Origin: a virus
Reading direction: 5' to 3' (one strand)
IMG/VR virus record: IMGVR_UViG_3300025030_000131
Location: 1 to 55,529 of that record
DNA: 55,529 bases
Below the pieces are notes generated by a model. That model did no database searches. It saw only the letters and a program-made list of their open reading frames with translations, and was not told where the DNA came from. The stretch's first letter is position 1, and every line of letters starts with the position of its first letter. Shown here piece by piece: positions 1,791 through 33,021 of this stretch. A program made the translations under genes and the position numbers.

Positions 1791-1791
1791 C

Positions 1792-2990: not shown

Positions 2991-3020
2991 AATATGATAT
3001 AAGTTGTCCATACAATGGGC

Positions 3021-3814: not shown

Positions 3815-3891
3815 TACATGGAACAGAAAAGAGGAAATAGACAATGCCTAGAACAAGACAATTAGTTCCCTGAAAGAGGTCAAAAAAAAGG

Positions 3892-4335: not shown

Positions 4336-4384
4336 ACAAGATTAGGGTATCGTGGCACAATCAGCCACGCCTAAAAGGAGAAAC

Positions 4385-4618: not shown

Positions 4619-4653
4619 GCGCCACCGGACAAGAATCCGCACCCTCGTAAAAT

Positions 4654-4692
4654 ACCAACGGCCCCGCATGGAACGGGGCCGTTGGTGTTTCT
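4654..4692 (+). terminator. Strong hairpin, terminator-like
   Basis: A 13-base arm at 4654-4666 pairs perfectly with 4674-4686 around a 7-base loop (CATGGAA), followed by GTTTCT. The T-tract is short. Confidence 0.65.
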
Positions 4693-4716
4693 GGAACTCA
4701 CCCTGATATGGGAGTC

Positions 4717-4762
4717 GGGAGGGCAGGCTAGGGGGGGTAGCCTGCCCTCCCTTCTTTATTTT
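4717..4762 (+). terminator. Rho-independent terminator
   Basis: GGGAGGGCAGGCTA (4717-4730) pairs perfectly with 4738-4751 around seven G residues, and a T-rich stretch (TTCTTTATTTTA) follows. With the hairpin just upstream it isolates the left block from the early genes. Confidence 0.75.
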
Positions 4763-4828
4763 ATGCGGATTGGTGTATTTGTCAAGAGTTTGGCAAGGGA
4801 ATGCGCCGTCTGAGTAGTTGCACAACCC

Positions 4829-4857
4829 TTGACATATTAGAAAATCCATACTAAAAT
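4829..4857 (+). promoter_or_regulatory. Sigma70-type promoter
   Basis: TTGACA (4829-4834), 17-base spacer, TAAAAT (4852-4857). It would drive the early run from 4907 onwards. Confidence 0.8.
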
Positions 4858-4906
4858 CATTCCATAGTAACGACCTATATCCTAACTCATGGAAAAGAAG
4901 GATGAA

Positions 4907-5269
4907 ATGACAAAAACAAAAAACACAGGACGTGGCATATCCACCCGTAAGCGGGAAATCCGCGACGCTCTCATGGGTAAAAAAACCGAAACTCAAATCA
5001 TGCTTGGTGAAATTAAGATAATGATGGGGGGTGGCACATTGGAATATCATACTTGGTTTGATCGTACATATAAACTTCGTGCCGCAGGGGATCAGGAAAA
5101 GTACGAGCAGGTGATCCGCAGGAAATACCTGTACCTGCTGAAAAAGACTCAAGTCCCATCCCCTGCCCCACTTCCAATAACTGACCACCTCCCACCCCTG
5201 ACTGCATCCAATGTCCTGAGTGATTGGATGTGCGCCAACTGGCATTTGATCCCGGAAGTGAGCTTCTAA
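4907..5269 (+). CDS. Hypothetical basic protein
   Basis: 120 residues from ATG 4907, chosen because AAGAAGGA lies just upstream; an in-frame ATG at 4889 has no ribosome-binding site. The N-terminal half is Lys/Arg-rich (GRGISTRKREIRDALMGKK), the C-terminal half Pro-rich with a final ANWHLIPEVSF. No family recognised. First gene behind the promoter at 4829; its stop shares one base with the next start (TAATG). Confidence 0.65.
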   Translation: MTKTKNTGRGISTRKREIRDALMGKKTETQIMLGEIKIMMGGGTLEYHTWFDRTYKLRAAGDQEKYEQVIRRKYLYLLKKTQVPSPAPLPITDHLPPLTASNVLSDWMCANWHLIPEVSF

Positions 5270-6477: not shown

Positions 6478-6478
6478 C

Positions 6479-6673
6479 ATGCCACAATCTCACACAGAGA
6501 CCAGAAACGGGATCACCGCCACCGTCTGGCCGTCCCCATTCAGCGCAGCCCAATGGTGCATTATCGTCACCAAAGGCGGCAATATGCTCACCGATACAGT
6601 GAGTGCGTCTGATCAAACAGACGCGGTAAACCTGGCTTTTGAAAAAGGGATTGAGCAGGGAATAGGAGAATAA
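6479..6673 (+). CDS. Hypothetical small protein
   Basis: 64 residues from ATG 6479 with AAAAAGGAG eight bases upstream; an upstream in-frame ATG at 6446 lies inside the previous gene. Contains a short strand-rich core (ITATVWPSPFSAAQWCIIVT) and an acidic helix near the end. Unknown function; placed between two larger early genes with almost no spacing. Confidence 0.65.
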   Translation: MPQSHTETRNGITATVWPSPFSAAQWCIIVTKGGNMLTDTVSASDQTDAVNLAFEKGIEQGIGE

Positions 6674-6674
6674 A

Positions 6675-7871
6675 ATGACTGACATAACCGTTATAGACGA
6701 ATTGGTATCAAAAAGGGACGCGGCGCGGAAGGAAGAAACCGCATCGAAGGAACAACGCACAGCACAGGCACAGGAGTCGATTGCCAACGATGCGCGGGAT
6801 GAAATCGGGAAGGACGGCCTGGGCTGGCTTCTGGATTATGGAAGGGAGTTGTTATCCGTGGACAGTAAAGGGAATGGGGTTTTTGAGTGGACTCTCTCCC
6901 CGAAAGGGATAAGGGAATTGAATATTTGCCCGGTCCAGATTGTGGCAGAAAGGCCTTTCGGCTGGCGGGCGGACTTTCGTTCGAATGAGGGCGTTCCCTT
7001 CCTATCCCTTCGCTTCGAGGTATTAAATTCAAATGGGATTTTCTCAACCATCCAAAATAAAGACGAGTGGTTGACCCGCGCCAGGGATGAGTATCAGCAC
7101 TATAACTCTCTCGTGGAGTATGAGGCGGCCCGGAAACTGACCGTCGAGGATGGGTATCCATTCAATGCGTACTATAACGAGGATGAGGAAAAGGCACGCC
7201 TGCATTATGAAAAACTATGCCAGACCGCGCCTGGCATGATGGAGTCGTGGGATAAGGAATACAAGGAATATCAGAAAGAGATCAATAAGATCAAGACCGA
7301 TAAACAGAAGACGGCCGAAGAGGAGTCCGCTCATCAGAAAGTGAAAGACTCCTATCGCAAGGCGTGGGGGGAATACAAAGCGGCTGCCCTCGCTGTCTAT
7401 GCCCACAATGAGAAGATTATCCAGGAGGCACAGGCGGAATTTCGAAAGACGGCCACTCTCTACGAATTGACTTATGGAGTCGTGGCCCTCGATGCGGATG
7501 AGAAATATGTCGAGACCCGTACCGTGTGGGTAAAGACGATGGGCACAAAGGAAGGCATGTTCACCCTGCTGGATGGGGACATTATCAAGTATCACCATCC
7601 CATATCCCTCCGCAAGGTCGAGGCCGGCACGGAGGATGGAGCCAGTTATGTCCACACGTTCTATCTGGCTGAAAATCCAAACGGAGTCCCTGGTTACAAC
7701 GCCCGCATACAATACCTGTTCGGGATCACCACCGAGGAGATGATCCGGGAATCCTTGACGGCCAGGGGCTTGAAGGAATATCCCGCCCAACCGGATAAGC
7801 CGGATGAATTGCAATGGTTCGAGGCGGAATTGATTCAGGGCGAGAAGTCCGAGGTTGAAGATGATCGATAA
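6675..7871 (+). CDS. Hypothetical protein with central coiled coil
   Basis: 398 residues. The first 60 residues and the region at about 195-265 are rich in Glu, Lys and Ala with heptad-like spacing (KEYKEYQKEINKIKTDKQK), predicting coiled coil; between them lies a globular part with PFGWRADFRSN. The C-terminal third holds strands (TLYELTYGVVALDADEKYV). I do not recognise the family. It overlaps the next gene, which starts at 7861, by 11 bases. Confidence 0.65.
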   Translation: MTDITVIDELVSKRDAARKEETASKEQRTAQAQESIANDARDEIGKDGLGWLLDYGRELLSVDSKGNGVFEWTLSPKGIRELNICPVQIVAERPFGWRADFRSNEGVPFLSLRFEVLNSNGIFSTIQNKDEWLTRARDEYQHYNSLVEYEAARKLTVEDGYPFNAYYNEDEEKARLHYEKLCQTAPGMMESWDKEYKEYQKEINKIKTDKQKTAEEESAHQKVKDSYRKAWGEYKAAALAVYAHNEKIIQEAQAEFRKTATLYELTYGVVALDADEKYVETRTVWVKTMGTKEGMFTLLDGDIIKYHHPISLRKVEAGTEDGASYVHTFYLAENPNGVPGYNARIQYLFGITTEEMIRESLTARGLKEYPAQPDKPDELQWFEAELIQGEKSEVEDDR

Positions 7872-8154
7872 GAAAAAGACTCCCCGCCCCTATTATGACC
7901 TGGCCCGGCTCGTTGCGATATACCGGGCTGTGGAAGAGTACAGGCAACAGCATGGGGGGGACAACCCCTCCATGCTGGATATTGTGAAGTTGGGACTGGC
8001 ATCCACGCCGGGAATGGTGTCTTATTATTACAGGCACATGCAGCGCATGGGGATGATAGGGCGCACCTTCCATCGATCCCGATCCGTACAGCTTCGCCCT
8101 TTGGAGGAAGCGGATCCGGCTATTTTGGAACATTTGAAAAAGGAAAAGGAATAA
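7861..8154 (+). CDS. LexA-type winged-helix DNA-binding protein
   Basis: 97 residues from ATG 7861, inside the end of the previous gene (GAGGTTGAAG upstream serves as ribosome-binding site). NPSMLDIVKLGLASTPGMVSYY followed by RHMQRMGMIGRTF and RSVQLRP follows the helix-turn-helix-wing order of the LexA DNA-binding domain (helix, SxPTV-like recognition helix, IxR wing). It lacks the LexA protease domain. Possible transcription regulator of early genes. Confidence 0.65.
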   Translation: MIDKKKTPRPYYDLARLVAIYRAVEEYRQQHGGDNPSMLDIVKLGLASTPGMVSYYYRHMQRMGMIGRTFHRSRSVQLRPLEEADPAILEHLKKEKE

Positions 8155-8157
8155 AAC

Positions 8158-8481
8158 ATGGCTACAATTAATTGGAATATGTCGAAACACGAATTTGAAT
8201 TGATCCTTAAGATAGCAGTTCGTGCCAGGGAACTAACAAAGGATACGGAAATTCACGCCAGGAAAGATACTCTTGAAATGGATGTCGCAGCCTGTCACCT
8301 GAATGGTTGCCCACTGCGATTGCAGGAGTTATTGGATGCCGACAATGGAAACTTTGCCCATGACGTATTTGGCATCCAAAAATATATTGACCGCAAGACC
8401 GGGAAGTTGATGGACTGTTTCGATCCCCGTTACTCTGTCCCGGAGAATGCGGTTGAGGAGGTATCCAATGAAAAAGTTTAA
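8158..8481 (+). CDS. DUF6874-like phage protein
   Basis: 107 residues, ribosome-binding AAAAGGAA upstream. MSKHEFELILKIAVRA, a D-x-A-x-C-H-x-NG-C-PL segment and LLDADNGNFAHDVFGI with DRKTGKLMDCFDPRY match a conserved small phage family that I know as DUF6874. No biochemical function is known to me. Its 3' end overlaps the next small gene. Confidence 0.65.
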   Translation: MATINWNMSKHEFELILKIAVRARELTKDTEIHARKDTLEMDVAACHLNGCPLRLQELLDADNGNFAHDVFGIQKYIDRKTGKLMDCFDPRYSVPENAVEEVSNEKV

Positions 8482-8626
8482 GGCCGTTTGGGTGGACGGG
8501 GATGGTAAGGTTGTCCTGGGCGTATTGACCAATCTTGTGAACGCAGGGGATGAGGCGCGTTCCAAGTCGGCTATGGGTTTTTTGGCCTGGGTGCAGGATG
8601 AGGAAAATAATAAGGTGGAGATATGA
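8468..8626 (+). CDS. Small hypothetical protein
   Basis: 52 residues from ATG 8468, preceded by a strong GAGGAGG. It overlaps the end of the previous gene by 14 bases and its own TGA overlaps the next ATG (ATGA at 8623-8626). Sequence starts MKKFKAVWVDGDGKVVLGVL and ends in an acidic tail. Position, ribosome-binding site and coupling make it a likely real gene; unknown function. Confidence 0.65.
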   Translation: MKKFKAVWVDGDGKVVLGVLTNLVNAGDEARSKSAMGFLAWVQDEENNKVEI

Positions 8627-8814
8627 TCCAGCCCATACGTCCCGACCCGGACGAGGAAAAAGCCGTCGAAATAGGTACTTACAAGGGATACACCTTGATC
8701 CTGACCAGCAAGGAGCGCATCCTTGTATTGATCTATGATTTGACGTATCCCGCCTATACCCTGCCGGATGCCAAGAAGCTGGTGGATGATCTTATGGATT
8801 CTCGCAAGAATTGA
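8623..8814 (+). CDS. Small hypothetical protein
   Basis: 63 residues, translationally coupled to the preceding gene by ATGA. Two short strands (GTYKGYTLILTSKERILVLIYD) followed by an amphipathic helix (LPDAKKLVDDLMDS). Last gene of the early run; a promoter and an sRNA-like unit follow. Confidence 0.65.
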   Translation: MIQPIRPDPDEEKAVEIGTYKGYTLILTSKERILVLIYDLTYPAYTLPDAKKLVDDLMDSRKN

Positions 8815-8822
8815 AATGGGGG

Positions 8823-8851
8823 TTGCAAATTTTTTCTTTCACCTGTATAAT
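8823..8851 (+). promoter_or_regulatory. Sigma70-type promoter of a short untranslated unit
   Basis: TTGCAA (8823-8828), 17-base spacer, TATAAT (8846-8851). A transcript would begin near 8858 and meet a terminator 60 bases later without an open frame. Confidence 0.7.
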
Positions 8852-8857
8852 CCCTGT

Positions 8858-8917
8858 TGGATGCAGTGACAGAAATGTCACTACCAACCGGGATCCTATA
8901 TCTCGGTTGGTTTTTTT
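8858..8917 (+). ncRNA. Candidate small RNA (two hairpins)
   Basis: From the expected start, AGTGACA (8865-8871), GAAA tetraloop and TGTCACT (8876-8882) form a perfect hairpin, immediately followed by a terminator hairpin. No start codon with a ribosome-binding site lies inside. It may be a phage regulatory RNA or an attenuated leader of the helicase gene. Confidence 0.5.
8884..8917 (+). terminator. Rho-independent terminator
   Basis: CCAACCG (8884-8890) pairs with CGGTTGG (8904-8910), followed by seven T residues (8911-8917). Confidence 0.85.
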
Positions 8918-8918
8918 A

Positions 8919-8948
8919 TTGACACAATCAGCCAAGTCGTGATAGGAT
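8919..8948 (+). promoter_or_regulatory. Promoter of the replication genes
   Basis: TTGACA (8919-8924), 18-base spacer, TAGGAT (8943-8948), directly after the terminator and about 45 bases before the helicase start (8994, with TAGGAG upstream). Confidence 0.6.
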
Positions 8949-8993
8949 AGCAGGCATAATACATATAGCATCCACTATATAGGAGATTAGATC

Positions 8994-11984
8994 ATGATAG
9001 CAATACCCGACCTGCAATGGTCAACAGCCAAAGAAATTCAAACAAAAAACGGTCCGCGCATGTTGCGAACCGCTGAGCCTACCCCCGATTTTTGGGAGTC
9101 CTGGCGCTCAAACAAAGATGCTCTTAAATTATTGGGAGTATCCTGTTCGCGCGATGAACGCTCCGGCGAATGGAAAATATGCTGGTGGCAGGAACTTACC
9201 GCCGAAACAAAACAGGAGCGCGCCGCATCGGTAGAGGCGTCGCGTGCCGTAAACGCAGAAATCGAACTTCCAAAACCGGATGGGCTGGATTACATGCCTT
9301 TCCAACGTGCCGGTATACGATATGCGCTTGATCGCCAAAATGTTCTAATTGCCGACGAAATGGGACTCGGTAAAACCGTAGAGACAATCGGCATTATCAA
9401 TGCAGACCCAGCCATTGCCAGCGTAGTTATTGTTTGCCCCAAATCCCTAAAGCTCAACTGGAAAAGGGAACTGGAAAAATGGCTTACCCGCCCGCTTTCG
9501 ATTGGTGTGGTAAACAATTCATGGCTCGCCTCAGATATTGTCATTCTGAACTATGAAGCGACTGGTAAATTTTCTGAACAACTCAAGGCGCATGAGTGGG
9601 ATGCGGTGATTGTAGATGAATGTTTTGTTGGAAATACTCTAATCGAAACCATCGAGGGTTCATGTCAAATAAAAGATTTACACCCTGGTATGCGCGTTGC
9701 GTCCTTCAATTTTTCAAGTAATGCGGTGGAATACAAAAAGATTTTGTATGTGAATCATCGACCAGCACCAAATATTTTATACAAAGTGGCTGGAAATGTA
9801 AGCACAGGCAACCATCCATATTATACAGAGGAGAGCGGTTATGTTAAGGCAAAGGAAATCTGTGGAAAGACTGTGCGAGCGTTGCGAAGTGTTATTTACA
9901 ACCCCGTCAAAGGGGAAGAATACCGCACGTTTTTGTTCGAGGAGATGCGTCAATATGGGAAACTCGTACGGCAAGAAACAAGTGCACAAAACGTACACGG
10001 CGACATGTCAGGAATGCGGGAAGGAGTTTATTCGAAGGGTTTTTGGACTCAGGTTTTGCAGTACGTATTGTTCTGCAATTTGGAGAGTAAGAACCATTAT
10101 CCATCCAGCCAAAAAGAACCCCAGCACTTTTCGAGAAAAAATTTCGAGCGGATTGAAAAGGGCTCATCACGAACGTCCTGGGTGGGCAAAAGAATCATCG
10201 AGGCGGATGAAAGAAAACAATCCAATGCTCAACGCCGACGCGCGCGAAAAAATGAAACAATCACTGACCGGGCGTACGTTTTTGGCGCGGGGAGGAAACG
10301 GAACGATTACGAGCCAACAAAAGAAACTTTTGAGCGCATTAGGATGGAGCGAGGATTGGTTAGAATATCCAATCAAGACGGCTTTAGCAAGCAAGAAATT
10401 CAAATCGCTTCCGAATTGCTACAAGGTGGACATAGCCAGCCCGAAACACAAATTAGCCATAGAGGTAGATGGCAAAACTCACAAACTGAAAAAATGGAAT
10501 TTTCTGGACAAACGAAAGACGGAGATTTTGAATTATTTAGGGTGGACGGTATTGAGATTTACGAACGAGGAAGTGGATCAGAATTTGAGCAGGTGTGCTC
10601 AGACGGTTTTGTCTACAATATCGAAGTAGAGGACAATAACAACTATTTTGCAAATGGAATATTAGTCCATAATTGTCACTACATCAAAAACAGCAAGGCA
10701 CAGCGCTCTAAAAATGTAAAATCAATACCATCACGCAGAAAAATCAGATTGACCGGGACACCAATCGTCAATAGGCCGATTGAACTTTATAACATCATAG
10801 AAGATTTACATAATGGTTTTGGTTCGTTTTTCTCGTTTGCCAAACGCTATGCCGGCGCACACAAAAATGGCTTCGGTTGGGACTTCTCAGGTGCTCAAAA
10901 TCTGGATGAACTGCAAAAACGATTACGAGAAACAATCATGGTGCGCCGTTTGAAAAAGGATGTACTCACAGAACTCCCACGGAAAATCCGTCAGATTGTG
11001 GAGGTGGAAGCCGACACTCCCGCCGCAAAACGGGCGGTAAAATCAGAACAGACTCATGAATCTGCGTCCGAAGAGAGACTGTCAAATCTCCGCGTATCTG
11101 TTGAGTTAAGCAAGGCGGAATCAGAGGATGCGTATAAATCAGCAGTTGCACGCTTGACAGAGGCGTCGCAGGTTGATTTTACTGAAATGGCCCGCTTGCG
11201 CCACGATACTGCTATGGCAAAAGTTCCCGCTGTGATAGCGCATATTACAAACGCGCTGGATGACAATGACAACAAAATTATTGTCGCCATCCACCACCAC
11301 GATGTAGCCGCCGCGCTTATGGATGGCCTGGCAGAGTTCTTTCCGGTTATTTTGACTGGCGAAAATAGCGAACAGGAACGAACTGCATCAGTGGACTCAT
11401 TTCAAAACGATCCGAAGGTGCGCGTGTTTATCGGCTCGATCACTGCCGCAGGAGTTGGGATCACCCTGACAGCTTCCTCGCATGTAGTGTTTGCCGAATT
11501 AGACTGGGTGCCGGGGAATATCTCGCAAATGGAGGATCGCGCTCATCGTATTGGTCAAACCGAAACGGTACTGGTGCAGCATATCGTATTATCCGATAGC
11601 CTGGATGCACGGATGGCAAATGCGATTATTTCAAAACAAAATGTGATAGACAATGCGCTTGATATTAACCATCCCGAACGCTCCGCGCCGGTGTATGAGC
11701 CAAAAAATAAAAGCGCATCTCATGGAGCGTCAGTATCCGAAATAGAGAAAATTGCAGAGACATTATCAACCGAACAATGTGCAATGATACATAATCAATT
11801 GCGTTATCTCGCCGGCATGGATGCCGACCACGCCAGCAGCTTGAATGGAATTGGATTCAACAAAATAGATACGCAGATTGGTCATGACCTGGCCGGGCGT
11901 GAGTGGCTTACTCCTAAACAGGCTGCGCTTGGAATTAAAATCTGTAAGAAATACCATAAACAGTTGATTGATTGGAAGGCATAA
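8994..11984 (+). CDS. SNF2-family DEAD-like helicase/ATPase containing an intein
   Basis: 996-residue precursor. After removal of the intein (residues 210-560) the extein is 645 residues. Motifs: Walker A DEMGLGKT (about residues 120-127), motif II VIVDE joined after splicing to CHYIKN (a DECH box), motif III LTGTP (about 586), and in the second RecA-like domain GVGITLTAS and EDRAHRIGQ (about 847-855), all typical of SNF2/Rad54-type ATPases that translocate on duplex DNA. Phage members are usually linked to replication or recombination. The C-terminal 100 residues are an accessory helical domain. It is followed at once by initiator and loader-like genes, so a replication role is likely. Confidence 0.9.
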   Translation: MIAIPDLQWSTAKEIQTKNGPRMLRTAEPTPDFWESWRSNKDALKLLGVSCSRDERSGEWKICWWQELTAETKQERAASVEASRAVNAEIELPKPDGLDYMPFQRAGIRYALDRQNVLIADEMGLGKTVETIGIINADPAIASVVIVCPKSLKLNWKRELEKWLTRPLSIGVVNNSWLASDIVILNYEATGKFSEQLKAHEWDAVIVDECFVGNTLIETIEGSCQIKDLHPGMRVASFNFSSNAVEYKKILYVNHRPAPNILYKVAGNVSTGNHPYYTEESGYVKAKEICGKTVRALRSVIYNPVKGEEYRTFLFEEMRQYGKLVRQETSAQNVHGDMSGMREGVYSKGFWTQVLQYVLFCNLESKNHYPSSQKEPQHFSRKNFERIEKGSSRTSWVGKRIIEADERKQSNAQRRRARKNETITDRAYVFGAGRKRNDYEPTKETFERIRMERGLVRISNQDGFSKQEIQIASELLQGGHSQPETQISHRGRWQNSQTEKMEFSGQTKDGDFELFRVDGIEIYERGSGSEFEQVCSDGFVYNIEVEDNNNYFANGILVHNCHYIKNSKAQRSKNVKSIPSRRKIRLTGTPIVNRPIELYNIIEDLHNGFGSFFSFAKRYAGAHKNGFGWDFSGAQNLDELQKRLRETIMVRRLKKDVLTELPRKIRQIVEVEADTPAAKRAVKSEQTHESASEERLSNLRVSVELSKAESEDAYKSAVARLTEASQVDFTEMARLRHDTAMAKVPAVIAHITNALDDNDNKIIVAIHHHDVAAALMDGLAEFFPVILTGENSEQERTASVDSFQNDPKVRVFIGSITAAGVGITLTASSHVVFAELDWVPGNISQMEDRAHRIGQTETVLVQHIVLSDSLDARMANAIISKQNVIDNALDINHPERSAPVYEPKNKSASHGASVSEIEKIAETLSTEQCAMIHNQLRYLAGMDADHASSLNGIGFNKIDTQIGHDLAGREWLTPKQAALGIKICKKYHKQLIDWKA
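9621..10673 (+). other. Intein in helicase motif II
   Basis: 351 residues, in frame with the helicase, from Cys210 to Asn560. N-terminal block A CFVGNTLIET, block B GNVSTGNHPYYTE (TxxH-like), C-terminal blocks F and G VYNIEVEDNNNYF and NGILVHN followed by Cys, the nucleophile of the C-extein. The host protein is cut within the DECH box, a typical intein site because it is highly conserved. Between the splicing blocks (residues about 285-530) the in-frame sequence is Arg/Ser/Gln-rich and does not look like a folded homing endonuclease; the endonuclease is encoded in another frame of the same DNA. Confidence 0.92.
9841..10629 (+). CDS. Out-of-frame homing endonuclease (VSR/DUF559-like) nested in the intein
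   Basis: 262 residues in the +1 frame relative to the helicase, wholly within the intein, with its own GAGGAG seven bases before the ATG. Two zinc-finger-like CxxC...CxxxC units (CERCEVLF with FCSRRC; CQECGKEF with FCSTYC), then a NUMOD3-like stretch (GLKRAHHERPGWAKESSRRM, KMKQSLTGR), then a nuclease core with LAIEVDGKTHKLKKW and LNYLGWTVLRFTNEEV, resembling VSR/EDxHD-type nucleases. It would cut intein-free alleles and so spread the intein. Both frames stay open for 789 bases. Confidence 0.85.
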   Translation: MLRQRKSVERLCERCEVLFTTPSKGKNTARFCSRRCVNMGNSYGKKQVHKTYTATCQECGKEFIRRVFGLRFCSTYCSAIWRVRTIIHPAKKNPSTFREKISSGLKRAHHERPGWAKESSRRMKENNPMLNADAREKMKQSLTGRTFLARGGNGTITSQQKKLLSALGWSEDWLEYPIKTALASKKFKSLPNCYKVDIASPKHKLAIEVDGKTHKLKKWNFLDKRKTEILNYLGWTVLRFTNEEVDQNLSRCAQTVLSTISK

Positions 11985-14433: not shown

Positions 14434-15762
14434 ATGAAACAAATAACATCGTTGTCAACCGAGCGAGTTGCGAGGTTCCGGGAGTTTGTAGATAAGTGGA
14501 CACACCTCGGATTGTCCACCAAGCCGGCTAACCACCCAGGGGCTGAGGACGCTCTGCGAAGGGCGTATCAAGTGGCCGGCCTGACACCTCCAAAATTTAT
14601 TGTGTGGATGAAAAGCCCGCGCGACGCAGTCTTGGCATGGGCTTTGATCTTGTCCTGGATAGTTGACGACCAAGTGAGCGACCAAGTGAGCGCCCAAGTG
14701 ATCGACCAAGTGCGCGCCCAAGTGATCGACCAAGTGCGCGACCAAGTGAGCGACCAAGTGAGCGACCAAGTGCGCGCCCAAGTGAGCGCCCAAGTGAGCG
14801 CCCAAGTGCGCGACCAAGTGCGCGCCCAAGTGCGCGCCCAAGTGATCGACCAAGTGCGCGACCAAGTGAGCGACCAAGTGAGCGACCAAGTGCGCGCCCA
14901 AGTGAGCGACCAAGTGCGCGCCCAAGTGCGCGACCAAGTGATCGACCAAGTGATCGACCAAGTGATCGACCAAGTGATCGACCAAGTGATCGACCAAGTG
15001 AGCGACCAAGTGTTCGCCCAAGTGAGCGACCAAGTGATCGACCAAGTGATCGACCAAGTGATCGACCAAGTGATCGACCAAGTGCGCGCCCAAGTGAGCG
15101 ACTATATCCAACAACGCTGGTGGTGGACCGGCTGGGGCAATCAGGAATGGTGGTTGTCCTGGATCGATTACTTCGGCTCCGCCGTTGGAATATCGGCAGA
15201 AAAAATCCATCCATTACTTGATCTCGCAGAACACGGCCATTGGTATTGGCCGATGCAGGGTATCGCCGTGATGTGTGAAAGACCTTTGGCTATTCGGCGC
15301 GACGGACGCGGAAGATTGCATTGCGACGATGGACCGGCAGTGGAGTACGAAGGCTGGACGATCTATGCCGTGGATGGAATGGGGATCCCTGATTGGATCG
15401 TGGAGTGTAAGGACCAGATCACACCTGAACGCATCAACGCCGAAAAAAACGCGGAAATTCGCAGGATCATGATGCGCTTCTATGGTTGGGATCGCTGGCT
15501 GGAAAACGTCAAGGCGAAACTTATTGACCGGGATCCAGACCCCACCATTGGGGAGTTGTGGTCATTCAAAGACGTGGATGGTGTGACCGTGAAAATACTT
15601 AAGGTTCGTAATGGCACAAGGGAAGTAGACGGATACCGCAGCTTTTCTTTGCGCGTGGACTCGGATTGCGAGACTGCACTCAAGGCAAACAGGTGGACAT
15701 ATCCTTCCTGTCGTCAAATGTCGGAGCAAGATTACCGTATTCTAAATTCTGCAAGATCATAA
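14434..15762 (+). CDS. DUF6745-type protein with long DQV tetrapeptide repeat
   Basis: 442 residues. The N-terminus (ERVARFREFVDKWTHLGLST, GAEDALRRAYQVAGLTPP, SPRDAVLAWALI), the middle (VMCERPLAIRRDGRGRLHCD, DGPAVEYEGW) and the C-terminus (NAEIRRIMMRFYG, then DGYRSFSLRVDS) fit the DUF6745 family. Residues 79-222 are 36 copies of a four-residue unit (D/A)QV(S/R/I/F). Family members often carry such a repeat of varying length at this point. Biochemical role unknown to me. It is followed by the small gene at 15777, a pairing I have seen with this family. Preceded by AAAGGAG about 9 bases before ATG. Confidence 0.75.
   Translation: MKQITSLSTERVARFREFVDKWTHLGLSTKPANHPGAEDALRRAYQVAGLTPPKFIVWMKSPRDAVLAWALILSWIVDDQVSDQVSAQVIDQVRAQVIDQVRDQVSDQVSDQVRAQVSAQVSAQVRDQVRAQVRAQVIDQVRDQVSDQVSDQVRAQVSDQVRAQVRDQVIDQVIDQVIDQVIDQVIDQVSDQVFAQVSDQVIDQVIDQVIDQVIDQVRAQVSDYIQQRWWWTGWGNQEWWLSWIDYFGSAVGISAEKIHPLLDLAEHGHWYWPMQGIAVMCERPLAIRRDGRGRLHCDDGPAVEYEGWTIYAVDGMGIPDWIVECKDQITPERINAEKNAEIRRIMMRFYGWDRWLENVKAKLIDRDPDPTIGELWSFKDVDGVTVKILKVRNGTREVDGYRSFSLRVDSDCETALKANRWTYPSCRQMSEQDYRILNSARS
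14668..15099 (+). repeat. 36 tandem 12-base units within the coding region
   Basis: Units of the form (gac/gcc)CAAGTG(agc/cgc/atc) repeat 36 times without a gap or an off-length unit. Variation is confined to the first and last codon of each unit. Six-unit blocks recur at a 10-unit distance (units 5-10 and 15-20), and runs of identical DQVI units occur (23-27, 31-34), signs of slippage or unequal exchange. Confidence 0.95.
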
Positions 15763-19789: not shown

Positions 19790-20128
19790 ATGACTACGCA
19801 CAATGCAAATACCTCAAACCCGCCTTATGTGGTTGGGGATATTCTTGCAGGGAAGAAAACAAACTACCCGCATCTGGATGCGGTTGGGGATGTTGGTATG
19901 CTGTGTGACAGGCAGGGGCGTCCTCTTGCACATTACATGGTAATCAGGCTATATCCTGACCCAGTCACCAATGAGGTTTTGTATGTTGATATTCAACTCA
20001 ATCAAACGCGAAACCCATACAAAGTAATACCCAATCCTAACGCGACGTGTGAAATCCATAAAGTATTATTTCCATGCGCTCAGTGCGCCGTCCTGGCGAA
20101 GGAAAACTATCAACAAAAAGACCCCTGA
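19790..20128 (+). CDS. Hypothetical protein
   Basis: 112 residues from ATG 19790, one base after the preceding stop, with AAGGGGCAAGG upstream. Soluble, with strands (GQPLAHYMVIRLYPDP-like, VLYVDIQLNQ) and a Cys/His-rich end (CEIHKVLFPCAQCAVLAKE) that might bind zinc. Last gene of the plus-strand operon. Confidence 0.6.
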   Translation: MTTHNANTSNPPYVVGDILAGKKTNYPHLDAVGDVGMLCDRQGRPLAHYMVIRLYPDPVTNEVLYVDIQLNQTRNPYKVIPNPNATCEIHKVLFPCAQCAVLAKENYQQKDP

Positions 20129-20150
20129 CCCATCAGGGGTCTTTTTGTTG
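20111..20150. terminator. Perfect 18-base-stem bidirectional terminator
   Basis: The arm at 20111-20128 (starting CAACAAAAAGACC) pairs perfectly with 20133-20150 around CCCA. A-tract on the left and T-tract on the right allow it to work on both strands. Confidence 0.85.
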
Positions 20151-25544: not shown

Positions 25545-25816
25545 CACATACTCTCCACCAGTGACGGCACGCCGTTAATGTATGAAATGTAATACCGGCC
25601 GCTCTCGCTATAGATAGCCTTCGCCACGTCATTCCCCAGCACCGGGCTTGTGTTTTCGTCCAGATTAAAGACACCGTGGCTGGTTGGCGGGTTGTCGTAT
25701 TTACCGCCTGGTAAAACGTTGAGAAAGCCATCGGTTTCAAATGTGTCTGCGTTCAAACATACACCGACCTGAAAACGCATTAGCCTCCCCGAAGTTTTAT
25801 CGAAAATGACAATCAT
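25544..25816 (-). CDS. Small hypothetical phage protein
   Basis: 90 residues, overlapping the upstream stop by 4 bases (ATGA). Strand-rich (MIVIFDKTSGRLMRFQVGV, YYISYINGVPSLVESM) with LGNDVAKAIYSESG. Often small beta proteins of this kind lie near tail fibres; function unknown. Confidence 0.6.
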   Translation of the reverse strand: MIVIFDKTSGRLMRFQVGVCLNADTFETDGFLNVLPGGKYDNPPTSHGVFNLDENTSPVLGNDVAKAIYSESGRYYISYINGVPSLVESM

Positions 25817-26130
25817 TCTTTGCTCCTATTCTGTGCAGCCAGCCACCCACCGAGCGCCACTGCGCCGCCGCTGAAAGCCAAGCCATATATAATTGCCTGC
25901 GCCGTGATTCCATGTAGAATAACGGCAATACCAACACCAGCCCAAACCGAAACACAGACAACGCACGTCACGCCGAGAGACGCCCATCTTCGGAAAAATG
26001 ATAATTCTTCGGGCGGGGTGTTTTGCTTGGTAATCCAATACCGAAACGGCGCAGAGATCATGTCTTGTCCTATGATTTGCGCCAGACGATAAGTCGCTAA
26101 AATCCCGACCAGTAGTATTACGATGTTCAT
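25813..26130 (-). CDS. DUF1360-like membrane protein
   Basis: 105 residues from ATG 26130, overlapping the stop of the RT remnant as ATGA. LVGILATYRLAQIIGQDMISAPFRYWI is the DUF1360 pattern, followed by a RRWASLGVTCVVCVSVWAGVG helix and a third helix near the end. Small membrane proteins of this family are common in phage lysis and tail regions. The intact ATGA coupling shows that the end of the RT gene is undisturbed. Confidence 0.65.
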   Translation of the reverse strand: MNIVILLVGILATYRLAQIIGQDMISAPFRYWITKQNTPPEELSFFRRWASLGVTCVVCVSVWAGVGIAVILHGITAQAIIYGLAFSGGAVALGGWLAAQNRSKE

Positions 26131-26450
26131 TTCACGCTCCATTTCACATTGTTGAATAAGGATTGGCGAAGGCGCCACGTCTGCGCATAACTTGCGTGTG
26201 CTACCCACGATTTTAGGTGCCTTCTTACTGTCGCCGCATCCTTGCGGCCAATGCGATACAAGTAAGCTAATTGATGCACCATACGTGCGGCTCGGATCAC
26301 ATTGCGACGCGTCAGTCGGCGAACTCCAGGTCGTAACACTCGAAACCCAAGCCAATTGATGCCGGCGCTAACCGGGCTCAATATTGTACGAGTGGGGTTG
26401 AGGGTAAGACCTAATCCATGCAAGAAAATTACTATGGCTTCCCGCCACAG
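26127..26450 (-). pseudogene. Reverse transcriptase of the DGR, C-terminal remnant only
   Basis: From about 26450 the minus strand reads QLALWREAIVIFLHGLGL, LNPTRTILSPVSAGINWLGF, RVLRPGVRRLTRRNVIRAAR and SWVAHASYAQTWRLRQSLF: the end of the palm and the thumb region of a DGR-type reverse transcriptase (about 100 residues). The fingers and palm with the catalytic YxDD box, some 230-270 residues, are absent. In the same frame a stop lies at 26511-26513 inside the template repeat, and only a TTG (26423) could serve as start. Homology begins right where the TR/VR match ends (26456), so one deletion seems to have removed the 3' end of the template region and the RT N-terminus. Confidence 0.8.
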
Positions 26451-26455
26451 TGCAA

Positions 26456-26551
26456 GTTGCTGTTGGCGTTCCGCGGCGAGTTGTTGCCGTTGACCGTCCA
26501 GCCACCCGCGTTAGTCGAGTTGTTCCAGTTGCCGCCGCGGAGGAGGGCGCG
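26456..26551 (-). repeat. DGR template repeat (TR)
   Basis: 96 bases matching the variable repeat 27027-27122 except for 11 substitutions, every one at an adenine of the TR (minus strand, coding sense). The TR contains 23 adenines; the other 73 positions are all conserved. It lies between the Avd-like gene and the RT remnant, the standard DGR position. Confidence 0.95.
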
Positions 26552-26568
26552 TAAGGTCCTGACCCCAG

Positions 26569-26952
26569 TCATACAGCATGCTCCAGGTAATAGTTGTGTG
26601 GAACGCTTTTATCAAGCGTGGCCCTCAACCATCCCCAAAGCAGCCGACCGACTTCGTCTAATAGTCCGGCGGCGTATTCATATTGCCGGAAGGCAATGTA
26701 CTTAAGCTCCATCGCCAGGCGAATAAGCGTTTTTAGTTGTCTCAACTTCACGACCAGGTCAGCCAGTGTGGCGGTTTTGCTTTGTTCTGCGTTGGCTTGT
26801 ATTGCGCCCAACATGATATCTGTCGCCAGTTTCTGTGTTTGCTCACCCAGCACGTAACGTTGAGTTTTGGGGTAGTTGGCAACAATAGGATAGAGCCATT
26901 TACAAAACTGATACAACCGATCATGAATGATGAGATGTTGTTTTTCTGCCAT
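26569..26952 (-). CDS. avd: Avd-like DGR accessory protein
   Basis: 127 residues, all-helical: LIIHDRLYQFCKWLYPIV, TDIMLGAIQANAEQ, LVVKLRQLKTLIRLAMELKY and YEYAAGLLDEVGRLLWGWLR form four helices as in the four-helix-bundle Avd protein, a basic pentamer that binds the reverse transcriptase and template RNA and is needed for mutagenic retrohoming. Length (about 125) is usual. Position between variable protein and template repeat is also usual. Confidence 0.85.
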   Translation of the reverse strand: MAEKQHLIIHDRLYQFCKWLYPIVANYPKTQRYVLGEQTQKLATDIMLGAIQANAEQSKTATLADLVVKLRQLKTLIRLAMELKYIAFRQYEYAAGLLDEVGRLLWGWLRATLDKSVPHNYYLEHAV

Positions 26953-27002
26953 TGTTTAAGTCCAGATTACGGATTGTCAGATTACAGATTTCAGGAGAGA
27001 AA

Positions 27003-28163
27003 CTAGGAGCAGCAGCGGAAACCGATGAGGCTGAAGGCGAGCCGCGGCGAGTTGTTGCCGCTGACCGACCAGCCACCCGCGTAAGTCGAGTTGTTCCAGC
27101 CGCCGCCGCGGAGGAGGGCGCGAGGACCCTGCAAGGCGTCGGCTCCAGTGGTAGCTCCAAACGGTGAATACGACTCGCCACCCTCCGCTTCACCTGTCCA
27201 TGAGCTAGTCGTCCATGCAGACCCAGCCTGGTCTGTATAAACGTCCTGCACAGGTGACCAGGTCGAAACTCTTTCCCAAACATTACCGGTCATATCGTAG
27301 CAACCCAGCGTGGAGACGCAGTTGGCGAGTGTGCCGGTTGGGTTGCTATTGACGTTGGCTGCCGCAGTCCAGCAGGTTGTGTTATTGTTCGCGCCTGCCG
27401 GTGTGCCAAATGCTGCCATGCTCCATTCATCATTCGTGCATAAGCGTTTGCCTGCGTTCATGCAGGCTTTGTATTGCGCGAAATAAGTCAAGCTTACCCA
27501 GGGCGTAGCATTGTAGGCAGATGCCGCCGCATTCCCAGCGTGGATGGCCTTGCCGGTGTTGCCAGAATTAGACGCGATGTATATATCTATCATCCAGTTA
27601 GAGCCTGGATACTGTACCATACCCGGCTTCGGTCCCTTTTCTGGATAATCCACATCGCCATCTTCTCTGGCGCTTGCAACCGAATACCTCGAAATGGCGC
27701 TGCTGCCGTTATTGTGTAACCATCCGATCAATCTGGATGTTGCCACCGAGTATCCGCTTGGATAACTGGCACTCGCTGAAATTTTGACGTTGAACTGACT
27801 GCCCGTTCCCGCGACAGCATAGACATAATAATTCATGCCAGCCGCCTCCGATCCGGTGTCCAAATCTGCAAAGGTCGCATTGAACGCGGCAGTTCTTGCG
27901 TATCCGATCCCATTTATTTCCAATTCCCCCACGCCAACCTGGATCGTGCCTGCGTCGACGTAAGAGAGGAAGCATTTGTATTTTTTGCTCCGCCGATCCC
28001 CCCATACCCAGGCCGCCTGAACCTCGTCATAATACCCATCATGGCCTGTGGCGACGTCATGCACATGCTCGCCGCCAACCAAACCAGTGAGTGCATTGAT
28101 TTGTGCCGTTGCCAGGCGGATTGCCACCGCAGGCCGTCCATATTGAATATCATTCTTTTTCAT
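27003..28163 (-). CDS. DGR variable protein: receptor-binding tip with FGE/C-type-lectin fold
   Basis: 386 residues. The N-terminal 180 residues are a beta-rich attachment part (HVHDVATGHDGYYDEV, YYVYAVAGTGSQF). The C-terminal domain has the formylglycine-generating-enzyme (SUMF1) type of C-type lectin fold used by many DGR targets: NAAASAYNATPWVSLTYFAQ, GKRLCTNDEWSMAA, LGCYDMTGNVWERV, then RALLRGGGWNNSTYAGG and GFRCCS. The variable repeat covers residues from RALLRGG to about 9 residues from the end. Compared with the template, AAC codons have become Gly, Tyr, Ser, Leu, Phe and Leu and one ACG Ser. It probably binds the host receptor. Confidence 0.88.
   Translation of the reverse strand: MKKNDIQYGRPAVAIRLATAQINALTGLVGGEHVHDVATGHDGYYDEVQAAWVWGDRRSKKYKCFLSYVDAGTIQVGVGELEINGIGYARTAAFNATFADLDTGSEAAGMNYYVYAVAGTGSQFNVKISASASYPSGYSVATSRLIGWLHNNGSSAISRYSVASAREDGDVDYPEKGPKPGMVQYPGSNWMIDIYIASNSGNTGKAIHAGNAAASAYNATPWVSLTYFAQYKACMNAGKRLCTNDEWSMAAFGTPAGANNNTTCWTAAANVNSNPTGTLANCVSTLGCYDMTGNVWERVSTWSPVQDVYTDQAGSAWTTSSWTGEAEGGESYSPFGATTGADALQGPRALLRGGGWNNSTYAGGWSVSGNNSPRLAFSLIGFRCCS
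27027..27122 (-). repeat. DGR variable repeat (VR)
   Basis: Last part of the variable-protein gene, 571 bases from the template repeat. Changed codons relative to TR: AAC to GGC, AAC to TAC, ACG to TCG, AAC to AGC, AAC to CTC, AAC to TTC, AAC to CTC. No change at any template C, G or T. Beyond it (27003-27026, coding GFRCCS) no match to the present template side remains. Confidence 0.95.
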
Positions 28164-30058
28164 TACGCAACCCTCCAGAATTCAAACGAAGAATATACTT
28201 CAACGTCTGTGTAATTGCTTACCCTGGCTTTGACAGATACGCCCACCCCATAATCAGCCTGCGCCGTCTGCGCCATATATTGGACTTCTAGAATTTTGGA
28301 TGCTGTCAATGTAAATCTACCGGACAGCGGAATATGCGCCCCAAAGTTCAGATGGCCTGTTACTCCCAACATATCGGGAACCATGACAGAGTCTGTTATG
28401 TTGTACAAACGTAATTGAGTCGCGTTTGTACCGTAGAACGCACATAGGATATGGGCATCATAAACTCCAGCGGCAAGTGTGATCTGATTGGATGCAATAG
28501 AACAAATTCCGCCAACGTCCTGTACCTCAGTATTCACAATTCTGGTTGTCCATGCGTTTGCCACTGCCGAGCCTCCCTCAGTTCCGTTTGCGCGTTCGTC
28601 ATGCAATAAAACATAATCAGGGGATTTGAGAGTAACAGACCCACCACCGTTATTTTGAAGTGTCCCATTGGGGACAATGATCTTCCCAACATTACTTACC
28701 GAGGGAGACCCATCCTCTTCTTCCATCGTCAGGTTGAATGGAGTTGACCCTCCCCCAAAAATTCCACCAGTTGTGACAGTCAACGTATCTGCCCCATCTG
28801 CCACCTGATCCACATTCAAGGTCAGGATGTCACCTTCTACGAAATCAGTAATCAGTGGGGTTGTGACCTTCACCCATCCGTTTACATCATCCCATTCAAT
28901 GACAGGTCGAAAGTCATCGTACACGTCCTGAAATATCGAGGTCATCCCGTTCAGGATAATGTCAAAGATGTTCGATCCATACGGTTCTCCCCACTTCCGC
29001 AGACGAAAATACCAAACATGGATATTGGCCGGCCCGGTGATCAATATCGAAGGGGCGATGTCATCCAGAACCGCAAGGGCACCGTCTTTTACAAAACCAA
29101 AAGCACCTCCGCCGCCACCTTCAATGCGCCAATCTGCCGCGCCCATAGTGGCATCGTATAACTTGTATATGATTGAAGTGCTCTGATCCAGCCATTCATC
29201 TGTGACAAGATAGCCCAAAGTCTCATCATCATTGACAGTGGGCGCGGTAAAATTCAAGAACTTGCGAACATATAGCGGATCGGTGATATCTAAATCAGGC
29301 GAAAAGACTGAAGGCGTATTGAGAATATCACCCCAATCAATAGCAGCCGCCAATCCTCCCTCACCCCCGTACCCCGTAAAGCGCGGATCGAAAATATCGG
29401 GATCGCTTGGATTATTGCCGATCCTGGTCTGACCTGCGTAGGTTTTTACTGAAAATAATAACCTGCGATTGTAGGCCGTTACGGGTATCTCCGCCGGGGT
29501 CAGTAACGGCCTTGAGTCTGCATCGCTACCCGCCTCATAATAGATCGTGCCGTCTGTGCCCACTTCCACATTGACCCATCGGGCATTGCCGGCCGGCACG
29601 TAGGAGGTCAGGTCGAAATCCTGTGTATTGATTACTTTGAATCCGTCCAGATAATACCAATATCCTCCAAGCTGCACGGTCATCCCTCCGGTGGGCGCGG
29701 GCAGGCCGCTCAGAATCTGTTCATTTCTAACCCATGTCGGGTTATCGCTCTCTCCGATGGTATGGTTGTGTTCCGGTATGTCGGGGATGCTTGTGTCGGG
29801 ATATACGTCCCTCGATCCCAAGACCTGCAATAAACTCGACCCAGGCAGATACCCCACCCACACCGGCCACTTGAGTCGGTTTGGGGAGCGTTGATTCCTG
29901 ACCTTCAATACCTGACCTGTGATATGGACGGTCACATATACCCGAAAAGAATCGTATTTGACTTCATCGGTGTGAAGATTTCCGATAAAGGCGGGAATCC
30001 GCGTATCCCGGCGGGCGATCTGAATGTCACCGATTAGATTGCGAGACTGTTTATCCAT
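28163..30058 (-). CDS. Tail fibre / tail-tip structural protein
   Basis: 631 residues from ATG 30058, which shares a base with the previous stop (TAATG). The N-terminal third (RVYVTVHITGQVLKVRNQRS) would attach to the tail; the rest is beta-rich with Gly/Asp/Thr, DYVLLHDERANGTEGGSA and a C-terminal jelly-roll-like part (GVYDAHILCAFYGTNATQLR, FTLTASKILEVQYMAQTAQA) like TNF/C1q-type fibre heads. It lies between the large tail protein and the variable tip protein, so probably links them. Confidence 0.65.
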   Translation of the reverse strand: MDKQSRNLIGDIQIARRDTRIPAFIGNLHTDEVKYDSFRVYVTVHITGQVLKVRNQRSPNRLKWPVWVGYLPGSSLLQVLGSRDVYPDTSIPDIPEHNHTIGESDNPTWVRNEQILSGLPAPTGGMTVQLGGYWYYLDGFKVINTQDFDLTSYVPAGNARWVNVEVGTDGTIYYEAGSDADSRPLLTPAEIPVTAYNRRLLFSVKTYAGQTRIGNNPSDPDIFDPRFTGYGGEGGLAAAIDWGDILNTPSVFSPDLDITDPLYVRKFLNFTAPTVNDDETLGYLVTDEWLDQSTSIIYKLYDATMGAADWRIEGGGGGAFGFVKDGALAVLDDIAPSILITGPANIHVWYFRLRKWGEPYGSNIFDIILNGMTSIFQDVYDDFRPVIEWDDVNGWVKVTTPLITDFVEGDILTLNVDQVADGADTLTVTTGGIFGGGSTPFNLTMEEEDGSPSVSNVGKIIVPNGTLQNNGGGSVTLKSPDYVLLHDERANGTEGGSAVANAWTTRIVNTEVQDVGGICSIASNQITLAAGVYDAHILCAFYGTNATQLRLYNITDSVMVPDMLGVTGHLNFGAHIPLSGRFTLTASKILEVQYMAQTAQADYGVGVSVKARVSNYTDVEVYSSFEFWRVA

Positions 30059-33021
30059 TATTCGATAAACCTGCACAGGTAAATGTCAATCAACGGCGCA
30101 ATATACCCAAGATTGCCGGTCTTTTCAAAATAACTTGCCCCTACGTCGCCGGTGAATCGGATTACTATGCCGCCTCCGAAGATGAAACGATTGTCATCCC
30201 CGCAATTCTCCCATACATCTGATCCGTTGGGAATCACCCCAGATACCGGAACCCACGTTATTCCGGCGTCCTCTGTTTTATAAGCCGTGAAGGTTCCATC
30301 TTGTGATCCTGCCATGGCAATATTGGAAGTTGGGGAAAATGCTATGCCCTGCCGGCTGTCAGGTTGTATGGCCGTAAACGGCGTCTCGATCCCCGCTGCA
30401 AACCTCATGTATCCATTGGTAGGGTTGTTATAGACAATTAGAAAATCATAACCTCTGGCGGAAGTGGCATAGGGCGAATAACCGGATGCCCAAAAACTGC
30501 CTTGCACAGTGTCAGAATAAGCACCTGCCGCATTGAGTCTGATATAGACGGGGTTTGTAAGGCTGCCCTGAATCCCTGCACCGCTCACAGCCGCAATCGA
30601 CCAGCCGCCGCCATTCCAGAAAATTGGCTGTTCCGTACCATGCAACAAGTTTCGTATGTAGATGGGTGAACCCGCAACCGCGCCCTCGCAAAAAGTGATG
30701 TAGATACTTCCGTATTGTCCATCATTAGGCCACGACCACGCGCGACCTCCTGTAATGACAATGCTGTCATCCTGGTTGGGATCAACCCCTATCCCGCGTA
30801 TGCCGGAATTTAGGTACCATCCTTCCACTGGATAAGCAGTCCATGATTGCACTAATTCCCATGTGGCTCCCACGCCAGCCGCGCGATAAACAGACTCGTA
30901 TCCTTGATTGCTGCCTGCCTTTTCCTTTGTCAGTATGTAAATAGCTCCCACTGGTGTGACTTGAATTTGAACAATAGCATCCCTTTCATCTTCTGTAAGA
31001 CCATTATTCATGGTTTTCCAGATAACATCAGCGGCATCCGCGTCAAAATTCTCCGTATATAGGACTCCGAATAAGGGTGCTACAATCACAACTTTTTTGG
31101 GATGATTGAGATTGATTTCGCCGGGAGGCATGGGGGGGGAGATTGGCGGCGGGATTGGAATTGTCGGCGGGGGAGGGAGTTCAAAATCCTCATCAATTCC
31201 ACTATCCGCCGGCACGTCCCCATCGACATTCAACTCTTCCACCGACTCGTCCTCGAACTGCACAATGGTATGGGCATATCCAGAATCGCGATCCCATAAA
31301 TATTCAATGGAACGGGGACAAAGGTATCCGTTGTATGGGACTCCTCTTGGGTTGTCTGCGGCCAGCATGACGATACTGGCGCGGCAATATTGGGCGACAC
31401 TGAACATGCGGTTATTTCCAACAAACTCAACAGGCAAATCATCGAAGAGCCTGTTGTCCCATCCAACCAAAAGACCAGCCAGGGCATTGCCCTGACTCTG
31501 ACTTGATAATAATAACTTCTCCATTGAGTCGGGATCGCCATAAGGGAATGGGATATGACCCGGTGACAGGGAAAAATAGGCAAAACCAGACCCATATTGA
31601 TCCACCTTTATCCCAGAGGAAAGCATTTGTGCCCTTTCCTCATACAGGTGCAATTCAACGCCTATCATATCCTGCCAGTCATCCGAGGTAATGGCCTGCA
31701 CCACAGGCCAGGCCGTTCTATCGGCCTCCGGCACAAGCTGCGGCTCGACTCTCAGATAGGCATACCCCAACCGATCAAATACCAGACTGGCAATGATGCT
31801 CGTAAATGCCATTTCCTCGATTTGCGCCCACAGATTCGTATTGATGCTTGCCATTTCAAGTGCCAGCCTTGTGTCGTTGCTTGGGTAGAAATCACAGAAC
31901 CTCAAAACGGTGGAACGGTAACGGAGCAGGTGGAATATGGCGCGGTCTATATTCAGGTCGGGCATATCCGTCCACAGACTCGGAGTGTTGATCGCCCTTT
32001 CCAACCCGGTGGGGAAGGTGGTTATTTTAGCGAGCCAGTATTTCCAGCCCTGTATGGTGATCTCCACGTTGCCAGTTTCCTCGTTGAAAGACATGGCATC
32101 GTCTGAAATCCTGCCAACCGATACGACATTTTCCTCCCCTTCGCAGTACCCGATGGACTCCACCTGGGAGTCGTAATAATCCTTTGCAAATAGGATCGTA
32201 AAGGCGCGGGCAACCATATTGGTCAGGTCGGCGTTCTCCGTCATCTGCACTTCAAAATATACGTCCTTGCCCTCATTGACTCTCACGGTATGGAGGTAGG
32301 TATTGATCTCGTTGATGTCTTTGACAAAGACATAGCGCATGCCGCGATAGGTCTTTCCTTCGCTGGTCGTCGCTGTGCAATAGATGACATAATTTCCCTC
32401 GGCATCCCATTCAAAAGTAGGGGTAGCCGTGTTGGGATTGGTGATATTTGAGGATCCGGGGGCTGTCCATGCGTAGGATGCTATGGTTGCGCCGAAAACC
32501 CATGAGTTCGAGGCGTCCCGCTCCAAAGTTACCGGATTCCCCGAAAACGGGATGACCACATGCCCGCCCATGTTGACCACCGGCTCGAATTCCTCATGCT
32601 GGTCGGTATATGCCTCCTCGTAATCTATCAGGAATTCACCGTCCACGATCTTGATATGTTTTGGGAGAATGTCGTAATCGTCCGCAATAGTCAGGTAACA
32701 ATCGGCCTGCCAGTCGATATGAGACAACTCGCCAATGTAGAATATGCTGGAGGTGGGGGCTTTCCTGATCCTGCAAATGCCCAGGTCGCTTGCCCCGGCG
32801 GTTGTGCCAACCAGCATAGTCATATCCACCAGGACATCGGCTAATGTGCCGACTCCGGTATTGTAATCAATAGAACCCACCATGTCGGTTGAAGTGGGGA
32901 CTCCATTCAGGCGCGCGGTATAGATCACGTTTGGCACGCGGGGGATCACAAACATTTCCGAGTATTGATTCTTGCCTCGTTGTTTGGTTAGTTCCGGGGA
33001 GGTGATGGCTCTAACAGACAT
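30058..33021 (-). CDS. Large tail protein with PKD-like domain and propeller-like C-terminus
   Basis: 987 residues. N-terminal 140: baseplate-like start. About 150-235: PKD-type immunoglobulin fold (NSWVFGATIASYAWTAPGSS, TFEWDAEGNYVIYCTATTSE). Middle: mixed alpha/beta. About residue 615 a proline-rich hinge (ELPPPPTIPIPPPISPPMPP). C-terminal 340: repeats of the sialidase/BNR type (TEDAGITWVPVSGV, GSQDGTFTAYK) suggesting a beta-propeller, likely for host-surface binding. Follows the tape measure and a small tail gene, the position of tail-tip proteins in siphoviruses. Confidence 0.7.
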   Translation of the reverse strand: MSVRAITSPELTKQRGKNQYSEMFVIPRVPNVIYTARLNGVPTSTDMVGSIDYNTGVGTLADVLVDMTMLVGTTAGASDLGICRIRKAPTSSIFYIGELSHIDWQADCYLTIADDYDILPKHIKIVDGEFLIDYEEAYTDQHEEFEPVVNMGGHVVIPFSGNPVTLERDASNSWVFGATIASYAWTAPGSSNITNPNTATPTFEWDAEGNYVIYCTATTSEGKTYRGMRYVFVKDINEINTYLHTVRVNEGKDVYFEVQMTENADLTNMVARAFTILFAKDYYDSQVESIGYCEGEENVVSVGRISDDAMSFNEETGNVEITIQGWKYWLAKITTFPTGLERAINTPSLWTDMPDLNIDRAIFHLLRYRSTVLRFCDFYPSNDTRLALEMASINTNLWAQIEEMAFTSIIASLVFDRLGYAYLRVEPQLVPEADRTAWPVVQAITSDDWQDMIGVELHLYEERAQMLSSGIKVDQYGSGFAYFSLSPGHIPFPYGDPDSMEKLLLSSQSQGNALAGLLVGWDNRLFDDLPVEFVGNNRMFSVAQYCRASIVMLAADNPRGVPYNGYLCPRSIEYLWDRDSGYAHTIVQFEDESVEELNVDGDVPADSGIDEDFELPPPPTIPIPPPISPPMPPGEINLNHPKKVVIVAPLFGVLYTENFDADAADVIWKTMNNGLTEDERDAIVQIQVTPVGAIYILTKEKAGSNQGYESVYRAAGVGATWELVQSWTAYPVEGWYLNSGIRGIGVDPNQDDSIVITGGRAWSWPNDGQYGSIYITFCEGAVAGSPIYIRNLLHGTEQPIFWNGGGWSIAAVSGAGIQGSLTNPVYIRLNAAGAYSDTVQGSFWASGYSPYATSARGYDFLIVYNNPTNGYMRFAAGIETPFTAIQPDSRQGIAFSPTSNIAMAGSQDGTFTAYKTEDAGITWVPVSGVIPNGSDVWENCGDDNRFIFGGGIVIRFTGDVGASYFEKTGNLGYIAPLIDIYLCRFIE

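What the first reader, a model, noticed from the sequence alone, without database searches (positions are those of the whole stretch)
26456..28163. Diversity-generating retroelement with strictly adenine-specific changes
Template and variable repeats (96 bases each, 571 apart) differ at 11 positions, all template adenines in the coding sense (11 of 23 adenines, 0 of 73 other bases). The variable protein has the FGE/C-type lectin fold and an Avd-like gene lies between. This shows that the tip protein was diversified by mutagenic retrohoming.
Basis: seen in the sequence. Interest (0 to 1): 0.7.

Follow-up and report, generated by a model that had tools for sequence, protein, structure and literature searches.

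The report
Phage hypermutation cassette missing its engine
This phage carries a real hypermutation cassette that once rewrote its tail-tip gene only at template adenines, but a single deletion has removed most of the reverse transcriptase and part of the template, so the present tail-tip variant is probably frozen; similarly inactivated cassettes have been described before.

Summary
The repeat observation is correct. TR 26456-26551 and VR 27027-27122 differ at 11 of 96 positions, all template adenines (p=1.5e-8). An Avd gene lies between them, and the variable protein matches Pfam's Mtd second domain and FGE-sulfatase models. So this is a genuine DGR cassette with past adenine-specific retrohoming.

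Downstream of the TR lies only the C-terminal third of a DGR reverse transcriptase (26133-26465, minus). Two related IMG/VR contigs (essentially one cassette type) and a third, more distant one carry the same cassette intact. Against the closer type, the window lacks about 892 nt in one block: the last ~24 nt of the TR (IMH* equivalent), the whole TR-RT spacer, and RT residues 1 to ~231 including the YMDD catalytic motif. That block is nowhere else in the window. The window appears to hold the whole ~51.46 kb circular genome, so no second phage-encoded RT is expected.

Best reading: a recently inactivated phage DGR, with the tail-tip variant fixed. It is recent because TR and VR still differ only at adenines and the RT remnant is still in frame. 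Inactivated DGRs with intact TR/VR were reported in 2012. Modest interest.

The parts
27003..28163 (-). Variable (target) protein, 386 aa, Mtd second domain and FGE-sulfatase-like C-terminal domain; putative tail-tip protein
   Evidence: Pfam PF21916 5.5e-12, PF03781 1.2e-10; PHROG tail protein 1e-17
27027..27122 (-). Variable repeat (VR), the part that matches the TR; by homology with L009 the VR reaches the stop codon at 27003
27003..27026 (-). 3' end of VR (IMH equivalent), still present here; its TR counterpart is deleted
   Evidence: The first 24 nt of the L009 interval missing at the TR match 27026-27003 at 83%; role by analogy with BPP-1
26569..26952 (-). Avd accessory protein, 127 aa, intact
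   Evidence: NCBIfam NF033474 over its cut-off; 97% identical to L009, 72% to L003
26456..26551 (-). Template repeat (TR), truncated at its 3' end (coding sense)
   Evidence: L009 TR/VR identity runs 120 nt
26455..26461 (.). Deletion junction: TR joined to the RT gene; about 892 nt missing against L009 6498-7389 (TR 3' end, spacer, RT residues 1 to about 231)
26133..26465 (-). C-terminal remnant of the DGR reverse transcriptase, no YxDD
   Evidence: tblastn 74% identical to L009 RT residues 232-342 of 343; phrog_1423 2.5e-20; PDB 8ub7_A residues 248-315, 3e-5
25813..26130 (-). DUF1360/phrog_781-like gene that follows the RT in the relatives too (syntenic marker, role unknown)

Best explanation
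This is a phage diversity-generating retroelement that used to work in the standard way: Avd and the RT made cDNA from TR RNA with errors at adenines, and the cDNA replaced the VR in the tail-tip gene. It was then inactivated by one deletion of about 0.9 kb, which joined the TR, shortly before its 3' end, to the RT gene a few codons after the YMDD motif. The IMH* end of the TR, the cDNA-priming spacer and two thirds of the RT are gone, so the phage can no longer diversify its tail tip by itself and the current VR variant is fixed. Shown here: the adenine-only changes, the presence of Avd, the truncated RT, the missing block and the intact relatives. Inferred: past activity, present inactivity, and the recent date of the loss.
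For: Adenine-only TR/VR differences. Same-order intact cassettes VP-Avd-TR-spacer-RT in L008/L009 and L003, with full RTs of 343 and 346 aa carrying RVT_1, YMDD and the SQ motif and adenine-only TR/VR differences (13 of 13 and 14 of 14). Collinear alignment with one gap of about 892 nt. No RVT_1 in the record and no copy of the missing block. The window appears to hold the whole genome: its last 100 nt equal 3970-4069, and contig L028/L019 (>=99.8% identical) runs across that join, also without RT. Recent loss: 0 of 73 non-A sites differ between TR and VR (95% upper bound 4%), and the remnant is stop-free with dN/dS 0.14 against L009. Functional need for the lost parts: in BPP-1 the spacer recruits bRT-Avd and primes cDNA synthesis at IMH*, and inactivating bRT (YMDD>SMAA), Avd or TR cuts repair to about 1e-9 (PMC12875486).
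Against: The deletion rests on one metagenome assembly; no reads could be mapped, and no second contig covering this locus in the same phage was found. A minority of the population may still be intact. The record's first 3,969 nt lie outside the inferred circle, so the genome form is not fully settled. No activity assay exists.
Confidence: 0.88

Rival explanations
1. Assembly artefact: the real phage has a complete cassette, and the assembler joined TR to the RT gene by mistake or chose a minority deletion variant.
For: Only one assembly covers the locus. DGR loci are hard to assemble; related contigs L001 and L002 end in or just after their VR.
Against: No exact repeat of 9 nt or more within the window spans the junction, so no repeat long enough for typical assembly k-mers is seen, though the missing sequence itself could not be checked. 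The remnant is in frame and the flanks on both sides are collinear with L009.
Confidence: 0.07
2. A working DGR served in trans: an RT from the host, a prophage or a co-infecting relative uses this cassette.
For: Avd is intact, and VR keeps its IMH-equivalent end. Related phages with intact cassettes exist, though not shown to share a host with this one.
Against: The TR here lacks its 3' end and the spacer, so by BPP-1 rules its RNA should not be primed even if an RT is supplied. VR could at most receive cDNA from another phage's own TR.
Confidence: 0.05
3. Not a DGR: an ordinary gene-end duplication with chance mutations.
For: A TR/VR pair is formally a short duplication.
Against: 11 of 11 changes at adenines (p=1.5e-8), Avd, RT remnant, and three contigs with complete cassettes.
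Confidence: 0.005

Closest known systems
Intact DGR cassettes of IMG/VR contigs 3300025306_000010 (L009), 3300022553_000229 (L008) and 3300013127_001717 (L003)
   Same: Same order VP-Avd-TR-RT-DUF1360-like gene; VP 60-67% and Avd 72-97% identical to the window; adenine-only TR/VR differences
   Different: They have the full TR 3' end, a spacer of roughly 170 nt and a complete RT; the window lacks all three
Bordetella phage BPP-1 DGR (bRT/Avd/Mtd)
   Same: Gene order target-Avd-TR-RT (BPP-1 order from PMC12875486), adenine-specific changes, Avd family, Mtd second-domain-like region, RT C-terminus related to PDB 8ub7_A
   Different: BPP-1 has a complete RT, spacer and IMH*; here they are deleted. 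No clear hairpin after VR was found
Inactivated DGRs with intact TR/VR described by DiGReF (Ruminococcus gnavus ATCC 29149, Acaryochloris marina MBIC11017, Bacteroides sp. 9_1_42FAA; PMC3521204)
   Same: Broken RT with adenine-only TR/VR, read by those authors as very recent inactivation
   Different: Those were nonsense, insertion and frameshift lesions; here a deletion removes the TR end, the spacer and the RT catalytic core together, in a phage

Membership tests
Diversity-generating retroelement (by descent) | TR/VR pair differing only or almost only at TR adenines, VR at the 3' end of a target gene | tested here: met
   11 of 11 differences at A; changed codons are VP residues 355-379 of 386
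Diversity-generating retroelement (by descent) | Accessory Avd gene (usual in phage DGRs) | tested here: met
   NF033474 over its cut-off
Diversity-generating retroelement (by descent) | Target protein with C-type-lectin/FGE-like variable domain | tested here: met
   PF03781 1.2e-10, profile evidence only; structure prediction inconclusive
Functional diversity-generating retroelement | DGR-clade reverse transcriptase with YxDD and SQ motifs | tested here: not met
   Only the last ~111 residues remain; no RVT_1 in the record
Functional diversity-generating retroelement | TR 3' end (IMH*) and TR-RT spacer | tested here: not met
   Missing against L009 and L003
Functional diversity-generating retroelement | IMH-equivalent end at VR | tested here: met
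   27003-27026 corresponds to the TR/VR end of L009 (83% over 24 nt); position by homology
Functional diversity-generating retroelement | GC-rich hairpin just after VR | tested here: inconclusive
   No stable hairpin in the window, L009 or L003 (z-scores -0.15, 1.30, 0.10)
Functional diversity-generating retroelement | Ongoing A-site diversity in the population | not testable with these tools
   No reads available

The most novel reading that the evidence does not exclude
The deletion was favoured because it locks a successful tail-tip variant. The phage keeps Avd and an intact VR target, so a co-infecting relative with a complete cassette could still rewrite its tip (off in cis, possible in trans).
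Probability: 0.08. Interest if true: 0.5.

Novelty: new member of a known kind. Interest (0 to 1): 0.27.

Why it matters
It shows that TR/VR adenine signatures alone do not prove a working DGR. Repeat-based detection would score this phage as a DGR carrier although the engine is gone, while RT-based detection would miss it. It also gives a recent natural knock-out in a phage, which could be compared with intact relatives to ask whether losing tail-tip diversification is tolerated or favoured.

Tried and rejected
(1) An exact 18-mer from the TR end in viral contigs gave four hits (L015-L018) with no similarity to the window, so chance matches. (2) Terminase and tail-protein searches to find sister phages: only one contig of a near-identical phage (L019/L028), which does not cover the DGR; the tail protein gave nothing. 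(3) Avd search of the genome collection: one weak partial hit, no host clue. (4) GenBank phages: one 30% identical FGE-like protein in Chromohalobacter phage YPCBV-1. (5) Structure prediction of the variable protein: pLDDT 30, not used. (6) Hairpin downstream of VR: none convincing. (7) PDB sequence search with the variable protein: no hit. (8) Considered that the RT lies elsewhere in the genome or beyond the contig end: made unlikely. (9) A relative-rate comparison of the RT remnant showed no excess change in the window (3 against 2 unique residues), too few to date the loss.

Full report
What is there. In the minus-strand (coding) sense the order is: tail protein 28163-30076, variable protein 27003-28163, Avd 26569-26952, TR 26456-26551, RT remnant 26133-26465, DUF1360-like gene 25813-26130. 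TR and VR (27027-27122) match over 96 nt and differ at 11 positions, all template adenines. The chance of that with 23 A among 96 is 1.5e-8; dropping the five bases that touch the deletion junction still gives 3.8e-7. Seven codons change, six of them AAC, the usual DGR pattern (own knowledge). Avd is over the curated NCBIfam cut-off. The variable protein matches the Mtd second domain and FGE-sulfatase models.

What is missing. No RVT_1 match exists anywhere in the 55,529-base record. The only RT trace is a stop-free reading frame of about 111 codons that matches the C-terminal part of the PHROG reverse transcriptase (2.5e-20) and of PDB 8ub7_A (residues 248-315). It starts about eight residues after the position of YMDD. 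The TR runs straight into it.

Comparison with relatives. Contigs 3300025306_000010 (L009) and 3300022553_000229 (L008) carry an Avd 97% identical to the window's and the same cassette with a 343-aa RT; they gave the same match coordinates throughout and count as one cassette type. L003 is a more distant intact example with a 346-aa RT. Their TR/VR pairs also differ only at adenines (13 of 13; 14 of 14). Window and L009 align in two collinear blocks that meet at 26455/26461 in the window but lie about 892 nt apart in L009 (6498-7389). The missing block holds the last ~24 nt of the TR, the TR-RT spacer (partly conserved between L009 and L003), and RT residues 1 to ~231 including the SQ and YMDD motifs. 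It has no significant match elsewhere in the window. The exact breakpoint is uncertain by a few bases because the two sides seem to share a short CAAC-like stretch; whether microhomology was involved cannot be decided.

Is the genome complete? The last 100 nt of the window equal 3970-4069 exactly. An independent contig of a near-identical phage (3300025154_001223; >=99.8%) runs from 53457-55529 on into 3970-11661 and has no RT. I infer a circular or circularly permuted genome of about 51,460 nt that lies wholly in the window. The first 3,969 nt are outside that circle and are unexplained. A second, phage-encoded RT is therefore unlikely.

How it worked and why it should not work now. In BPP-1, the spacer between TR and RT recruits the bRT-Avd complex and primes cDNA synthesis at IMH* at the TR 3' end; inactivating bRT, Avd or TR cuts repair to about 1e-9 (PMC12875486). 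The window lacks the spacer, the IMH* end and the catalytic core. Inactivity follows from what is known of BPP-1; it was not tested here.

When. TR and VR show no non-adenine difference in 73 sites (95% upper bound 4.0%), and the RT remnant has dN/dS about 0.14 against L009 at nearly the same dS as Avd (1.14 and 1.13; dS values this high are rough). So most of the divergence from L009 seems to have happened while the RT was under constraint, and the loss is recent. The DiGReF authors argued the same for their inactivated DGRs (PMC3521204).

Verdict. It is a new case of a known phenomenon, with a lesion that removes template end, primer region and enzyme at once.

Noticed in passing
window 8994-11984 (+), insert 9621-10673: A SNF2-type helicase gene carries an intein-like insert (aa 210-560) that splits the DE|CH (Walker B) motif, with weak matches to HINT/intein splicing models at its two ends, below the Pfam cut-offs; a 262-aa DUF559-type endonuclease ORF (9841-10629) is nested inside it in another frame while the helicase frame stays open.
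   Followed up: partly
window 1-3969 and 55430-55529: The last 100 nt repeat 3970-4069, and a near-identical contig joins 55529 to 4070; the first 3,969 nt therefore lie outside the inferred circle, and their first 132 nt are 96% identical to 4204-4335.
   Followed up: partly
window 14664-15102 (+ strand ORF 14434-15762): A long tandem array of short units encodes DQV/RAQV-type repeats in a protein with a C-terminal DUF6745 domain (3.8e-40); one antisense frame is open as ALGRSLGR-type repeats and another as HLVDHL-type repeats.
   Followed up: no
L001 end, L002 end: Two related contigs end within or just after their VR, as would be expected if active diversification breaks assemblies; the window, with its broken cassette, assembled through, but so did intact L003, L008 and L009.
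   Followed up: no
window 54550-54587 and 20111-20150: Two near-perfect palindromes of 38-40 nt in self-comparison, possible terminators or regulatory sites.
   Followed up: no
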